This document shows positions 4,555-60,967 of a DNA stretch of 64,000 nt, one piece after another (position 1 is the stretch's first letter; every line of letters begins with the position of its first letter). Below the pieces are notes generated by a model. That model was not told where the DNA came from. It saw nothing but the letters and a program-made list of their open reading frames with translations, and searched no databases. The DNA lies in the NCBI GenBank assembly GCA_938002655.1, contig CALLAC010000010.1:84882-148881 (forward strand), given 5' to 3'. The position numbers and the translations under genes were made by a program. The DNA comes from an uncultured Cytophagales bacterium. GTDB taxonomy: Bacteria > Bacteroidota > Bacteroidia > Cytophagales > Thermonemataceae.

Positions 4555-6258
4555 TTATGAGCTTGTGCCTGTTTTGCCTTGTGCTTCTAATTGGGCTTTG
4601 AGTTCATCTTTCAGTACTTTACGCAAAATCTTGCCTACATTGGATTTGGGCAACTCTTTGCGAAACTCAATATCACGAGGCTGTTTATAGCCTGTTAGGT
4701 TTTCTTCGCAATATTTACGCAACTCTTGCTCTGTGAGGCTTTCATCTTTTTTTACTACATAAATTTTAACTCTTTCTGTGGCTTTGGCATCGGGCACACC
4801 GATAGCGGCAACTTCTAAGACTTTGGGGTGCCCTGCAACTACATCTTCTACTTCATTTGGATAGACATTGAAGCCTGAAACCAAAATCATATCTTTCTTT
4901 CTGTCTACAATTTTGAAAAATCCATCGGGTTGCATGACCCCAATGTCTCCTGTTTTGAACCAACCGTCTTCTGTAAAAACTTTGGCAGTTTCATCAGGGC
5001 GATTCCAGTAGCCCAACATCACATTAGGACCTTTGGCACAAATTTCACCTGCTTCCCCCAAAGGCACCTCTCTGCCATCTTCATCAATCAATTTCAAATC
5101 AACGTTGGGCAAAGGGATACCAATGGTTCCAATTTGCTCGGTACCATCGATAGGGTTGCAAGTAAGTACAGGCGAAGTTTCGCTCAATCCGTAGCCTTCG
5201 GCTACTGCAATGCCTGTGAGTTGTTTCCATTTTTCGGCAACGGGCTTTTGCATAGCCATACCGCCTGCTACAATAGTTTTTACTCCACTCCAATTGATTT
5301 TTTTGAAATCGGGGTGGTTCATCATACCGATAAAAAGCGTATTGAGCCCTGTCATCACGGTAAAGCGATTTTTGATAAGCTCGCCTAAAAAGCTTTGCAT
5401 ATCACGAGGATTGGGAATAAGAATATTTTTTGCTCCGATGGCTATCATTGAAAAGCAGTTTACCGTAAGAGCAAAAACATGATATAAAGGCAACGGAGTA
5501 ACAATAACTTCCTGTCGCTCTACCAATTTAGGAGCCATCCACGCCTTGATTTGCATCATATTGGCTATAATATTACGATGCGTAAGCATCGCTCCTTTGG
5601 AAACACCCGTAGTACCACCTGTATACTGCAAAAAGGCTATATCTTGGGAAGTAATTTCAGGAGATTTGTAGGGGTTTTTCGCTCCCAAAGCCAATGCTTT
5701 GTTGAAAGCAATTGCATTGGGGATATTAAAAGGAGGCACCATTTTTTTCTTGTACTTCACTACATAATTTACGATTTTCCCTTTCAGAAAGCCCAACATA
5801 TCCCCTATTTCTGTAACAATAACATGCTTGATGTTTGTATGAGGAAGTGCTTTTTCTAAATTGCTTGCAAAATTGGCAAGTATGATGGTTGCTTTTACAT
5901 CAGCATCTTTGTACTGATGTTCCATTTCACGCACTGTATACTGCGGATTGACATTCACTGCGGTACAGCCTGCTCGCAAAACACCAAACAAAGCCACAGG
6001 ATACTGCAAAATATTAGGCATTTGCAAGCCGACTTTATCGCCTTTCTGCAAGCCCAAACTTTGTAAAAAAGCCGCAAAATCACGAGATTTTTTATCTACT
6101 TCCCGATAAGTAAGTACTTTATCCATGAATTGATAGGCAGGCAAGTCTGCAAATTTTTGGAAATGCTCTTCTAAAAAAGCTACAAGCGAAGGATAAGCAT
6201 CAGGATTGATTTCTTTGGGTACTTTTGGAGGATAACTCTTGAACCATACTTTTTCCAT
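4555..6258 (-). CDS. fadD: Long-chain fatty acid-CoA ligase (AMP-binding)
   Basis: YTGGTTGVSKGAMLTHRN, GYGLSETSPV, GWFKTGDIG, DRKKDMILVSGFNVYPNEVE. Confidence 0.9.
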   Translation of the reverse strand: MEKVWFKSYPPKVPKEINPDAYPSLVAFLEEHFQKFADLPAYQFMDKVLTYREVDKKSRDFAAFLQSLGLQKGDKVGLQMPNILQYPVALFGVLRAGCTAVNVNPQYTVREMEHQYKDADVKATIILANFASNLEKALPHTNIKHVIVTEIGDMLGFLKGKIVNYVVKYKKKMVPPFNIPNAIAFNKALALGAKNPYKSPEITSQDIAFLQYTGGTTGVSKGAMLTHRNIIANMMQIKAWMAPKLVERQEVIVTPLPLYHVFALTVNCFSMIAIGAKNILIPNPRDMQSFLGELIKNRFTVMTGLNTLFIGMMNHPDFKKINWSGVKTIVAGGMAMQKPVAEKWKQLTGIAVAEGYGLSETSPVLTCNPIDGTEQIGTIGIPLPNVDLKLIDEDGREVPLGEAGEICAKGPNVMLGYWNRPDETAKVFTEDGWFKTGDIGVMQPDGFFKIVDRKKDMILVSGFNVYPNEVEDVVAGHPKVLEVAAIGVPDAKATERVKIYVVKKDESLTEQELRKYCEENLTGYKQPRDIEFRKELPKSNVGKILRKVLKDELKAQLEAQGKTGTSS

Positions 6259-56903: not shown

Positions 56904-56918
56904 CAGAAAATTTTTGTA

Positions 56919-58226
56919 ATGAAAATCGGTCAAAATTTTTATCAGTATCAGATACAATCGTTGATAGCAGAAAGCAATACAGCCCGCAATTGGCTTGCCA
57001 AGCACCAAAGCCTGCCTCGCAATGTGCGTATCAAACAGCTTAAAAATGAATTTTTGCAAAGTGAACAGCAAAAACTCCAACTTCGCCATATAGCCGTTCA
57101 GAATGCCGAACTTGCACACGGACACATTCCCGTACTTTACGACTATTTGGAAAATTCGCAAGGGATATTTTTTGTGTACGATTACGTAAATGGGATTACC
57201 TTGGATAAGTTTTTGCAAAGCAACCCTTCTAGCGAAAAACGAAAAGATATTTTCTTGCAAATTCTTTCGGCTGTTGCTTATAGCCACCGAAAAGGGGTTT
57301 GTCATTTACACATCAGCCCTTCGAATATTCTCATTACTCCCGAAAACAAAGTGTTTCTGAACGATTTTGGTTTTATGCAACTCTCGCCCCGTCCCTCTTC
57401 TTTTTTAGCCCCCGAGCAATTGCAAGGTGGTTATACAGATACACGTACCGATATTTTCATGCTTGGTAAACTTTTAGCATATCTTTTCCCTACTGCTTCG
57501 CCAGAACTACAAAAAGTTATCCAAAAGGCTTGTGCCAGCGAAGCCTATCAACGCTATCAGACTTGCGAAGAACTACAAAACGACTTGCAACACGCTATTT
57601 TTGAAATAACACATCAACAACTGCCGAAAAAAAATGCTTGGGTTTCTGCTTCGGTAGGTATTAGCATTATAATTCTTTTCTTCGGTGGGGCTTGGTGGGG
57701 CTTACGAATTATCGCAAAAAATCAGCAAAAAAAGTCACAAGTCACAACCTTTCAGAGCGAAAACCCCCTAGTTATTCAGCAACCCAACGACACCACCGAC
57801 TACACCAAACTCGCAGAAGCCAAACAACAAGAAGAGAAAGAACGACAAAGAAAAGAAAGCCAAGAAGAACGCAGAAAAGATAGCTTGAAGAAAAAACAAG
57901 AAGAGCGTAAAAAAATAGAAAAAGAACGCAAAGAAAAAGTTCTCAAAAATATAATTGTAGATGGTCAGTTTGTAAGCAATCTACTCGGTGAGTACAAAAT
58001 CAATGTAGAAGTTTTCAATAATAACAAAGATTTAGAGCCGCAAAGAGTGGTAATTCTGATTTCTTACTTTGATACACAAGGCGAAGTAATTGCCAAAGAG
58101 GAAAAAGTTTTAGAAAAACTTCCTGCCCAACAGGCTATTTCTTTTGAAGTAGTTAAGAAAATCAATGCCGCACGCTTTTCGTGCAAAGTCAAAGATGCTG
58201 AGCTACCCCCTTTGCCCGAAGAGTAA
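56919..58226 (+). CDS. Protein kinase-like (predicted pseudokinase) membrane protein
   Basis: Kinase fold cues RIKQLKNE, HLHISPSNIL (in place of HRDLKPxN), LNDFGFMQL, FLAPEQLQGGYTDTRTDIFMLG; then a TM segment (VSASVGISIIILFFGGAWWGLRII) and charged coil. Confidence 0.8.
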   Translation: MKIGQNFYQYQIQSLIAESNTARNWLAKHQSLPRNVRIKQLKNEFLQSEQQKLQLRHIAVQNAELAHGHIPVLYDYLENSQGIFFVYDYVNGITLDKFLQSNPSSEKRKDIFLQILSAVAYSHRKGVCHLHISPSNILITPENKVFLNDFGFMQLSPRPSSFLAPEQLQGGYTDTRTDIFMLGKLLAYLFPTASPELQKVIQKACASEAYQRYQTCEELQNDLQHAIFEITHQQLPKKNAWVSASVGISIIILFFGGAWWGLRIIAKNQQKKSQVTTFQSENPLVIQQPNDTTDYTKLAEAKQQEEKERQRKESQEERRKDSLKKKQEERKKIEKERKEKVLKNIIVDGQFVSNLLGEYKINVEVFNNNKDLEPQRVVILISYFDTQGEVIAKEEKVLEKLPAQQAISFEVVKKINAARFSCKVKDAELPPLPEE

Positions 58227-58385: not shown

Positions 58386-59168
58386 CTACTTTTCAGCGAT
58401 AAAAAACAAATCCAAAGCTTTTTCGGTGTTTTTGGTCAGAAAGTAGTCAGTATAATCAATTTCTATTGCCATAGCATTAGGATTTTTCAGCAGATAGTTG
58501 CGATTGATACGATTGAGCAACGTGTAAGGTATTTGCAAAACATATCGAGGTAAGCGATATTCTAAATTTAAAATATCCCATTTTTTCCATTTGGCTACTG
58601 CTTTTCGGTTTTCCTCATGATAGCGTTCTACTTTTTCATTCCCCCATACTCCTTGTTTTTCTATTTTTTGAAAAGAAATTTTTAGCAATTTTTCTAAATC
58701 TTCTGCCGTATATTCTCGAATATGCCAAGGATTGCGGGTCAGGGATTGTTTGATGTTCGGAGTAGAAAGAATGAACTTGCCTGTGGGTCTTAAAACTCTA
58801 TAAATTTCTTCAATCAGCAGTTTGTCGTTAGGAATATGCTCAATCACCTGAAAGCAAAGTACATAATCAAAACTATCGTCTTCTAAACTTTCCAGAGGGG
58901 GTATATGATGCGTAATAAATCTATGTTGAGGATATTTTTTTTGCAGTTGCTCAATGAGCTGTTCATTTTTATCCAAAGCCGTATAACTATCGCATTTAGG
59001 AAAAATAACTTCTAAACCTCTGCCCAAGCCACAACCAATTTCTAAAACATTGCCACTTATCATTTGAGAAGCCGCCCAATAAGCAAAAAAAAGCCTTTGA
59101 TGAATGGGATTATCAGAAATAATTGTGTTTGAGGTGATTTCAGTGGTAGAAAACATATTTACATCCAA
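58386..59168 (-). CDS. Class I SAM-dependent methyltransferase
   Basis: NVLEIGCGLGRGLEVIFPKCDSYTALDKNEQL, DSFDYVLCFQVIEHIPNDKLLIEEIYRVLRPTGKFILSTPN. Confidence 0.9.
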   Translation of the reverse strand: MDVNMFSTTEITSNTIISDNPIHQRLFFAYWAASQMISGNVLEIGCGLGRGLEVIFPKCDSYTALDKNEQLIEQLQKKYPQHRFITHHIPPLESLEDDSFDYVLCFQVIEHIPNDKLLIEEIYRVLRPTGKFILSTPNIKQSLTRNPWHIREYTAEDLEKLLKISFQKIEKQGVWGNEKVERYHEENRKAVAKWKKWDILNLEYRLPRYVLQIPYTLLNRINRNYLLKNPNAMAIEIDYTDYFLTKNTEKALDLFFIAEK

Positions 59169-59195
59169 AGTTGCTTGTTTTGAAAAATTGCTTTG

Positions 59196-59600
59196 TTACT
59201 TTTTTTTCAATGTTTTTTCACGTTCCAAATAAAACTCATTTCTTTCTTGCTGAATTCTTTGCAATTCTTGATGATACCAAGACACATCTTGCATAATTAC
59301 AAAATAAAAATACTCGCCATATTGTTCAAAAGAACGAATAATACATCGAAATTGCATGAGCTTGTCATATAGTTTGGTTTCAATGAAATTGATGCTTACT
59401 TCTTGAATATCTCTGGAGAGCAAATGTTCTAAAAAAGGGAAGAGTGTGTAAGCAGATTGACCATAGCTATCTTTTAGTTCCAGAAAAGAGTTATTGCTGT
59501 GCAAAATTTGGGCATTGATATCTAAAAGCATTGCTAAATGGGTATCTCTTGCAAAGAGGCGATAAGCCTGCTCAAAAATATCTTGATAGTTGATTTTCAT
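59196..59600 (-). CDS. Small PAS-like domain protein
   Basis: HLAMLLDINAQILHSNNSFLELKDSYGQSAYTLFPFLEHLLSRD...RCIIRSFEQYGEYFYFVIMQDVSWY resembles a PAS fold; C-terminal coiled coil. An alternative start exists at 59633. Confidence 0.55.
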   Translation of the reverse strand: MKINYQDIFEQAYRLFARDTHLAMLLDINAQILHSNNSFLELKDSYGQSAYTLFPFLEHLLSRDIQEVSINFIETKLYDKLMQFRCIIRSFEQYGEYFYFVIMQDVSWYHQELQRIQQERNEFYLEREKTLKKK

Positions 59601-59616
59601 TCTATCAAAATTTTGT

Positions 59617-60114
59617 TTACACTTTTTTTCCAATCATTGCTTCGGCAAGGGCTAAAAACGCATTTTCAACGTTTGCACCTGTTTTGGCACTGCACAAGAA
59701 ATCGTAGCTTACAGGAAGTTGTTTTAATTGTTCGGAGCTGATTAAATCAGCTTTATTGGCTATTTTTAGAATGGGTACATTCGGTAAAATTTTTTGTACG
59801 TATTCTATATCTGCTTGCATATTTTCGTAGGTTGAAGGTCGGGTGACATCAAACACATACAAAATTCCATTCGAACCTAAATAATAAGAAGTGCTGACAC
59901 GAGTTTGTGTAACCTCGCCTGCAATGTCCCAAATCATCAAGTTTACGATATCTTCTCCAAGTTCTACCACTTTTTTATCAATTTTTACTCCCAAAGTAGT
60001 TAAATACTCTTCTGAAAATTTTTGATACACAAAACGTTTGGTAAGCGAGGTTTTACCAACGCCAAAATTTCCAATTAAAATTACTTTTTTGCTGTACGTT
60101 TTTCCTGTATTCAT
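59617..60114 (-). CDS. Ras-like small GTPase (Rab/Rup-like)
   Basis: ILIGNFGVGKTSLTKRFV (P-loop), TTLGVKI, LMIWDIAGE, IANKADL, CSAKTGANV. Confidence 0.92.
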   Translation of the reverse strand: MNTGKTYSKKVILIGNFGVGKTSLTKRFVYQKFSEEYLTTLGVKIDKKVVELGEDIVNLMIWDIAGEVTQTRVSTSYYLGSNGILYVFDVTRPSTYENMQADIEYVQKILPNVPILKIANKADLISSEQLKQLPVSYDFLCSAKTGANVENAFLALAEAMIGKKV

Positions 60115-60967
60115 TTATTTTTTGGGTAATTAGGTTGTAGTGTGGAAAGTCCTCAATATGTTTTTTAAGTATTGCATTCAAGTCAGTTTGTTGGATTTCT
60201 TCATCAGAGCGTTGGCTCAAATATCTTTCGTAAAATAACTGCATATAACTTTGCAAACGCTCCTGAAAACTTTTATCTGCCACTCCCGAAACTACTGCAA
60301 CCAAATAAAAACGCACTGCACTGAATACAAACATTTTCAAGTTGCCATATTCCAGCGTTTCCAAATCGGCTTTATTTCCAAAAGCATCATTAACAAAAGA
60401 TTTAATAGCCGTAAGCATGCCTGCTACCATATCGTCATCTACTATATCAGTTTGGCTATAATGGGCTTGTAAAATACCTGAATTTTGCCAAATTACAAAA
60501 AATTCTTGAATACTTGCTTGTGAAGCCTGAGCCAAAAGAATTTCTTCTTGTTTAATACCAAGCAAACTCAAAAGCTCTCGCCGAAGTGCTTGCCACGAAA
60601 AACTATCGTCTATTTGTTTGTTTATATTTTCGTTGAGTTTTTCCAGTTCAGTCTTGATAAACTTTTGTACAAGTTTGCCAATAATAGGATAGAGAGCATC
60701 AATGATTTCAGGTTGCGACTCGCGAATTTCACGCTTAATTGCCTGGCTGATATTGTTGAGCTTACCGACCTCGTTTTTTACTTTTTCAACTTTTTCCTCT
60801 AAAATAGGTTCAAGTTTGAGTAAAATTTTTTCTTCTTCTTTCGAAAAACTTTCTTTGATACTACGAATTTCTTGGGAAATTTTTTCTTGCACCTGCAAAT
60901 TTTGTTTTTGCAAGACTTCCTCAAACATATCAAAGAAAACATTTACCTTCTCTAATGCATCATTCAT
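60053..60967 (-). CDS. Coiled-coil protein with Roadblock/LC7-like domain
   Basis: IIDALYPIIGKLVQKFIKTELEKLNENINKQ...IQEFFVIWQNSGILQAHYSQTDIVDDDMVAGMLTAIKSFVNDAFG...LEYGNLKMFVFSAVRFYLVAVVSG. Confidence 0.65.
   Translation of the reverse strand: MNDALEKVNVFFDMFEEVLQKQNLQVQEKISQEIRSIKESFSKEEEKILLKLEPILEEKVEKVKNEVGKLNNISQAIKREIRESQPEIIDALYPIIGKLVQKFIKTELEKLNENINKQIDDSFSWQALRRELLSLLGIKQEEILLAQASQASIQEFFVIWQNSGILQAHYSQTDIVDDDMVAGMLTAIKSFVNDAFGNKADLETLEYGNLKMFVFSAVRFYLVAVVSGVADKSFQERLQSYMQLFYERYLSQRSDEEIQQTDLNAILKKHIEDFPHYNLITQKINEYRKNVQQKSNFNWKFWRW

What the first reader, a model, noticed from the sequence alone, without database searches (positions are those of the whole stretch)
58386..60967. 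Ras-like GTPase / Roadblock-like / PAS-like gene set: possible MglA-MglB-type signalling module
Seen in sequence: four closely spaced minus-strand genes. They encode a coiled-coil protein whose C-terminal half reads as Roadblock/LC7-like (IQEFFVIWQNSGILQAHY...DDDMVAGMLTAIKSF), a small GTPase with all G-box motifs, a small PAS-like coiled-coil protein and a SAM methyltransferase 27 nt further on. Established: prokaryotic Ras-like GTPases (MglA, Rup families) are often encoded beside Roadblock regulators such as MglB. Inference: this is a GTPase switch in which the Roadblock-like protein acts as GAP or scaffold and the PAS-like protein supplies an input; the fusion architecture and PAS partner may be undescribed. 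Membership of the methyltransferase is the weakest part.
Basis: partly seen in the sequence, partly recalled or inferred. Interest (0 to 1): 0.7.

Follow-up and report, generated by a model that had tools for sequence, protein, structure and literature searches.

The report
Bacterial Rup GTPase with longin-like partner
These genes are a compact, conserved bacterial version of a little-studied Ras-like switch (Group 1 Rup), and its partner protein, described in 2014 only as having an unknown domain, is predicted to share the fold of the longin/roadblock domains that control Rab-type GTPases in eukaryotic cells.

Summary
The genes are real and three of the four form a conserved unit. It is not an MglA-MglB module but a compact member of the Group 1 Rup system described computationally in 2014 (PMC4316618): a GTPase lacking the G3 glutamine (WD[IV]AGE in all 31 homologues aligned), a partner with an 'unknown' domain, and the N-terminal domain of signalling outputs with an invariant Gln. 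New here: (i) the unknown domain has the longin/roadblock fold: AF2 topology and Foldseek agree, and in 8 of 25 genomes a longin Pfam profile lands on this gene as best or only (weak) hit, while Robl_LC7 never does; (ii) the 134-aa protein is a PAS domain without its output, fused in relatives to SpoIIE, histidine kinase or HD-GYP; a related PAS in this genome sits on a hybrid kinase; (iii) the peptidoglycan-binding membrane protein found beside the partner in relatives is elsewhere in this genome; (iv) partner and GTPase genes overlap by 62 nt across the family. The methyltransferase is a neighbour, not a member. Whether the partner is GEF, GAP or scaffold is untested.

The parts
60053..60967 (-). 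Protein A (304 aa): N-terminal helical/coiled-coil region plus C-terminal longin/roadblock-fold domain; soluble form without TM or OmpA
   Evidence: ORF; family alignment; AF2 and Foldseek; longin Pfam hits
60152..60550 (-). Longin/roadblock-fold domain of A (residues about 140-272): helix, 2 strands, helix, 3 strands, 2 helices
   Evidence: AF2 secondary structure, pLDDT 70-89 in most core strands; Foldseek; Fuz_longin_1 profile lands on 60152-60424 in this genome
60551..60967 (-). N-terminal helical region of A, predicted coiled coil
   Evidence: AF2 helices at low confidence; subthreshold coiled-coil type Pfam hits
59617..60114 (-). Rup Group 1-type small GTPase (165 aa); only small Ras-like GTPase found in the genome
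   Evidence: Pfam Ras 8.6e-32; family alignment; genome search
60053..60114 (-). 62-nt overlap of the A and GTPase reading frames; A's C-terminal tail (NFNWKFWRW) is read from the bases of the GTPase P-loop region in another frame
   Evidence: 62 nt in seven family loci, about 50 nt in L008
59914..59916 (-). G3 box residue 67 of the GTPase: Glu in place of the catalytic Gln (DIAGE)
   Evidence: alignment; compare PMC4316618
59196..59600 (-). Protein P (134 aa): free-standing PAS domain with C-terminal signalling helix, no output domain
   Evidence: AF2 pLDDT 82 and Foldseek PAS/LOV hits; relatives fused to SpoIIE, HisKA or HD-GYP
59247..59249 (-). Gln118 of P, invariant in the signalling helix (IQQERN motif)
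   Evidence: alignment A2; consistent with the invariant Gln reported for Group 1 Rup output modules
58386..59168 (-). SAM methyltransferase; neighbour, judged not part of the module
   Evidence: Methyltransf_11 9.7e-19; next door only in the closest Raineya genomes (L001-L003, L013, L014), absent in L004 and all others

Best explanation
This is a compact member of the Group 1 Rup small-GTPase system. Shown: the GTPase lacks the G3 Gln and is co-encoded, in overlapping frames, with protein A; A has a predicted longin/roadblock-fold domain behind a helical stalk; P is a PAS domain with an invariant Gln in its signalling helix. Inferred: A dimerises through its longin domain and forms the platform that binds the GTPase and controls its nucleotide state (exchange factor or scaffold, by analogy with longin and roadblock dimers). 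In other lineages A is tied to membrane and peptidoglycan by its own TM+OmpA tail; here that role would fall to a separate TM + peptidoglycan-binding protein encoded elsewhere (contig C9). The GTP-bound switch engages the PAS/signalling helix of P, whose invariant Gln may complete GTP hydrolysis in trans (the 2014 proposal). The signal would leave through a PAS-bearing output enzyme, here perhaps the hybrid histidine kinase on contig C1, with free P acting as adaptor, competitor or GAP.
For: GTPase: WD[IV]AGE in all 31 aligned homologues, the published Group 1 Rup hallmark. Neighbourhood: relatives show the published set of coiled-coil protein, unknown domain with TM/OmpA, Rup and output module. 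Fold of A: AF2 topology; 32 PDB hits at E<=1e-3, from AP sigma/mu, COPI, TRAPP, MON1-CCZ1, VAMP7 and Ragulator. Longin profiles land on A as best or only hit of a whole genome: PF19031 in G061, G063, G064, G006, G007; PF19036 in G000, G002, G006, G007, G063, G064; PF01217 in G052; Robl_LC7 in none of 25. P is PAS and is fused to outputs in relatives. Detached pieces in this genome: PAS-hybrid kinase and PG-binding membrane protein. Purifying selection on A, GTPase and P.
Against: No interaction, exchange or hydrolysis data are known to me for any Rup system. The AF2 model of A has mean pLDDT 56 (core strands mostly 70-89). Every longin profile hit is below Pfam's cut-off (per-genome E about 0.01-0.3), and 17 of 25 genomes give none on A. 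A's core also aligns collinearly with bacterial roadblocks by hhalign (single-comparison E 0.007-0.009, probability about 2%), so longin versus roadblock is a lean, not a proof. The links to the C1 kinase and C9 membrane protein rest on homology to operonic relatives only. No GTPase tree was built.
Confidence: 0.62

Rival explanations
1. MglA-MglB-type polarity/motility switch: A is a true Roadblock/LC7 GAP and the GTPase is MglA-like.
For: Roadblock and longin share a core fold; Foldseek includes Ragulator and LC7-type hits; hhalign of A with bacterial roadblocks is collinear, E 0.007-0.009.
Against: Robl_LC7 does not match A in any of 25 genomes even at E<=10, while longin profiles do in eight. 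The GTPase has DIAGE and the Rup Group 1 neighbourhood; the 2014 paper separates Rup from MglB-coupled MglA.
Confidence: 0.1
2. A is not the nucleotide regulator but a passive scaffold or anchor; P (PAS with the Gln helix) is the real GAP/effector.
For: P's Gln is invariant in the A2 alignment, as published for output modules; the GTPase lacks its own Gln.
Against: Roadblock and longin partners of small GTPases commonly act on the nucleotide cycle (MglB, TRAPP, MON1-CCZ1; established). Four Saprospiraceae loci with visible flanks keep A and the GTPase without a recognisable P next door (L019, L021, L022, L024).
Confidence: 0.25
3. A relic in decay: output, anchor and coiled-coil genes have been lost from the locus and what remains has no function.
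For: Output domain, PG-binding protein and separate coiled-coil gene are missing at this locus.
Against: dN/dS 0.03-0.10 on A, GTPase and P; the gene overlap is kept across the family; candidate missing partners exist elsewhere in the genome.
Confidence: 0.03

Closest known systems
Group 1 Rup GTPase system (Wuichet & Sogaard-Andersen 2014, PMC4316618)
   Same: GTPase without G3 Gln; partner carrying the conserved unknown domain; output N-terminal domain with invariant Gln; overlapping taxonomic range
   Different: Soluble A without TM/OmpA; free-standing PAS without output; no separate coiled-coil gene at the locus; A and GTPase frames overlap; the unknown domain now has a predicted fold
MglA-MglB (Myxococcus, Thermus)
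   Same: Small GTPase co-encoded with a roadblock/longin-superfamily partner
   Different: MglB matches Robl_LC7 and A does not; different G3 box; no PAS output partner
HerMon / tri-longin RabGEFs (MON1-CCZ1, FUZ-INTU, HPS1-HPS4)
   Same: Pfam profiles of their first longin domains land on A; fold hits include MON1-CCZ1 (5ldd)
   Different: Three longins per chain, heterodimers, membrane traffic in eukaryotes; A has one longin-like domain
Actinobacterial conservon (Cvn/Mfp)
   Same: Operon joining a small GTPase, a roadblock-fold protein and two-component signalling
   Different: MglA Group 2 GTPase with MglB-type roadblock and CvnA kinase
Asgard longin/roadblock GTPase regulators (PMC10933270)
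   Same: Prokaryotic longin domains thought to regulate small GTPases
   Different: Archaeal and generally not in operons with the GTPase; here bacterial and co-encoded

Membership tests
Group 1 Rup system | Ras-like GTPase lacking the G3 glutamine | tested here: met
   DIAGE in the window, WD[IV]AGE in all 31; Pfam Ras 8.6e-32
Group 1 Rup system | Adjacent gene with the conserved unknown domain, often followed by TM+OmpA | tested here: met
   A is homologous to OmpA-bearing versions; TM/OmpA itself is absent in the window copy
Group 1 Rup system | Separate coiled-coil cytoplasmic protein | tested here: not met
   Present in most relatives, absent at this locus and beside L005-L008; the rest of the genome was not searched for it; described as conserved in the neighbourhoods, not as obligatory
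Group 1 Rup system | Output module with N-terminal domain and invariant Gln | tested here: inconclusive
   N-terminal domain with Gln present as P; output missing here, a related PAS-kinase exists in trans
Group 1 Rup system | Phylogenetic placement in the Rup Group 1 clade | not tested
   No tree against MglA/Rup reference sets was built
MglA-MglB | Robl_LC7-matching MglB partner | tested here: not met
   No Robl_LC7 match in A or elsewhere in the genome
Longin/roadblock superfamily | Core fold | tested here: met
   AF2 topology and Foldseek, moderate model confidence
Longin domain | Sequence similarity to longin families above curated cut-off | tested here: not met
   Only subthreshold, but A is best or only hit in eight whole genomes
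HerMon RabGEF | Three tandem longin domains | tested here: not met
   One longin-like domain in A
HerMon RabGEF | GEF activity on its GTPase | not testable with these tools
   Needs biochemistry
PAS domain | PAS fold | tested here: met
   AF2 pLDDT 82; the 50 listed Foldseek hits are PAS/LOV proteins; no Pfam PAS match

The most novel reading that the evidence does not exclude
The conserved unknown domain of Group 1 Rup systems is a bacterial longin akin to those of MON1-CCZ1/FUZ-INTU and acts as the exchange factor for the Rup GTPase: a bacterial Rab/longin-GEF pair, showing that this pairing is not confined to archaea and eukaryotes and giving a simple system in which to study it.
Probability: 0.3. 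Interest if true: 0.85.

Novelty: new variant of a known kind. Interest (0 to 1): 0.56.

Why it matters
The 2014 study proposed that eukaryotic Ras-superfamily GTPases derive from ancestral Rup GTPases, yet no Rup system had been characterised and its partner domain was unassigned. A longin/roadblock fold for that partner gives a concrete mechanism to test and ties a widespread bacterial envelope-signalling system to the protein class that activates Rabs. The Raineya version is small, soluble and reduced, which makes it a good candidate for biochemistry.

Tried and rejected
Curated family models: no Pfam or NCBIfam family above cut-off for A or P. PDB sequence search with the A profile: only noise. 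Robl_LC7 in 25 genomes: never on A. Rab11-FIP3 hit to A's coiled coil (4.5e-4, below cut-off): judged coiled-coil composition. Methyltransferase as a member: rejected by synteny. Decay hypothesis: rejected by dN/dS. Laying the whole genome for local scripts was not available. Literature searches for bacterial longins and for later Rup work found nothing beyond the 2014 paper in the held open-access library, which lacks most subscription papers.

Full report
Setting. The window lies in a 2.64-Mb draft genome whose nearest named relative found is Raineya orbicola (Cytophagales). Four minus-strand ORFs are confirmed: A 60053-60967, GTPase 59617-60114, P 59196-59600 (ATG start) and a methyltransferase 58386-59168. 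They lie between a divergent folK (Pfam HPPK) and a convergent kinase-like gene.

The GTPase. It matches Pfam Ras at 8.6e-32 and is the only small Ras-like GTPase found in the genome; the other Pfam Ras hits are weak and in longer ORFs of 291-1003 aa, not identified further. P-loop GNFGVGKT, NKAD and SAK are present, but G3 is WDIAGE. In all 31 homologues aligned, from Cytophagales to Thiothrix, Dehalococcoidia and a Methanomassiliicoccales archaeon, the box is WD[IV]AGE. Absence of the G3 Gln is the published hallmark of Group 1 Rup GTPases, for which a Gln supplied in trans was proposed (PMC4316618).

Synteny. All 12 loci found through A (eight genomes of the family, four other Cytophagales) have the GTPase next to it, and 20 of the 21 loci found through the GTPase have an A homologue next to it, in Raineya, Saprospiraceae, Dehalococcoidia and Thiotrichales. 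A profile of A finds 14 of 396 sampled genomes of the phylum; the distribution is broad but patchy. In those wider loci the GTPase directly follows A in six (L051, L052, L054, L058, L061, L063), lies nearby in another orientation in three (L055, L060, L064) and is not visible in the short flanks of the other five. Outside class Bacteroidia most A homologues are about 490-740 aa with a hydrophobic segment near residues 285-360, and the two Thiotrichales versions scanned have a C-terminal OmpA match (2.5e-8, and 2.6e-5 just below cut-off). This fits the 'unknown domain + TM + OmpA' protein of the 2014 paper. Most relatives also keep a separate coiled-coil protein with an IRDILFGxQ-like motif; it is missing at this locus. 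The methyltransferase sits next door only in the closest Raineya genomes and not in L004, so it is not part of the module.

Fold of A. AF2 on a 20-sequence alignment gives helix 140-148, strands 152-160 and 166-171, helix 178-195, strands 204-207, 210-216 and 220-227, helix 232-250, helix 263-272. Mean pLDDT is low (56), but most core strands and the helix after them score 70-89. Foldseek against the PDB returns 32 hits at E<=1e-3, from AP sigma and mu, COPI, TRAPP, MON1-CCZ1, VAMP7 and Ragulator, all longin/roadblock-class subunits as far as their descriptions tell. To separate longin from roadblock, Pfam profiles were run over 25 whole genomes holding the gene. Intu_longin_1 lands on A as best or only hit in five (G061, G063, G064, G006, G007). 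Fuz_longin_1 does so in six (G000, G002, G006, G007, G063, G064), including the window itself at 60152-60424. The AP-sigma profile does so in G052. That is eight distinct genomes. Robl_LC7 never lands on A, although it finds proteins above its cut-off in seven of these genomes. Each longin hit is individually weak (E about 0.01-0.3 per genome, all below the Pfam cut-off), but a random weak hit would fall on this roughly 400-bp target in a 4-Mb genome with a probability of order 1e-4 (my estimate), and hits recur in three lineages. hhalign of the A core with eight bacterial/archaeal roadblocks is collinear over the domain at E 0.007-0.009 for a single comparison with shallow profiles and a low probability. 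The superfamily assignment is well supported; longin over roadblock is a lean.

P. AF2 (pLDDT 82) gives two strands, three short helices, three strands and a long C-terminal helix, and the listed PDB matches are PAS/LOV domains. In relatives the same domain is the N-terminus of SpoIIE phosphatases (L005, L006, L015, weakly L011), a histidine kinase (L010) and HD-GYP proteins (L025, L026). Gln118 in the signalling helix is invariant in the nine-sequence alignment, consistent with the invariant Gln reported in 2014. In Raineya, L009 and L017 the domain stands alone. A related PAS domain in this genome is on a 649-aa hybrid kinase (PAS-HisKA-HATPase-REC-Hpt) at C1:276856-278805, with counterparts in G001 and G002.

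Membrane link. In G004, G006 and G007 the gene directly upstream of A encodes a protein with an N-terminal hydrophobic segment and a C-terminal PG_binding_1 domain (1.5e-14 in L005, 1.5e-7 in L006); similar-looking genes stand upstream in L012 and L051 (seen by eye). The homologue in this genome lies at C9:73839-74468 (E 6e-63; L070). This suggests that the peptidoglycan anchor built into A elsewhere is a separate protein in Bacteroidia and lies away from the locus in Raineya (inference).

Overlap. The last 62 nt of A are read in another frame by the GTPase; A's tail NFNWKFWRW and the P-loop region share the same bases. The overlap is 62 nt in seven family loci and about 50 nt in L008, which argues for translational coupling.

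Mechanism. Shown: gene set, conservation, predicted folds, missing G3 Gln, invariant Gln in P. Inferred: A dimer as GEF or scaffold, P helix as effector and possible trans-acting Gln donor, C1 hybrid kinase as output. Purifying selection is strong on A, GTPase and P (dN/dS 0.03-0.10 against the two closest species), so the reduced locus is not a relic.

Novelty. The Group 1 Rup system is known only from computation. The longin/roadblock fold of its unknown domain, the split of anchor and output away from a compact locus, and the conserved reading-frame overlap were not found in the papers available here. That library is open-access only, so prior work elsewhere cannot be excluded.

Noticed in passing
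window 56916-58226 (+): Ser/Thr-kinase-like protein (Pkinase 1.7e-22) whose HRDxKxxN motif reads HLHISPSN: catalytic Asp and Lys replaced while DFG is kept, suggesting a pseudokinase with a TM segment and a charged C-terminal region.
   Followed up: no
L029:4563-5534: Methanomassiliicoccales archaeon: a WDIAGE-type GTPase directly downstream of a true Robl_LC7 gene (5.5e-18), an archaeal pairing of a Rup-like GTPase with a canonical roadblock.
   Followed up: partly
L015:4303-4890 and 5025-5522: Two tandem Rup-type GTPase ORFs behind one A gene in a Microscillaceae MAG.
   Followed up: no
L069:497-1498: Near the PAS-hybrid kinase in the same genome lie two small genes that read like SiaB/SiaC (SpoIIE-linked switch) proteins; seen by eye, not tested. 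The genome has 16 SpoIIE-domain matches.
   Followed up: no
L076 and L077 (G002:C1:3292952-3293203, G005:C373:12363-12617): True Robl_LC7 proteins in two relatives of this family but not in the window's genome; their partner genes were not examined.
   Followed up: no
L019, L021, L022, L024: Four Saprospiraceae loci keep the coiled-coil gene, A and GTPase but have no recognisable PAS/output gene directly downstream.
   Followed up: no
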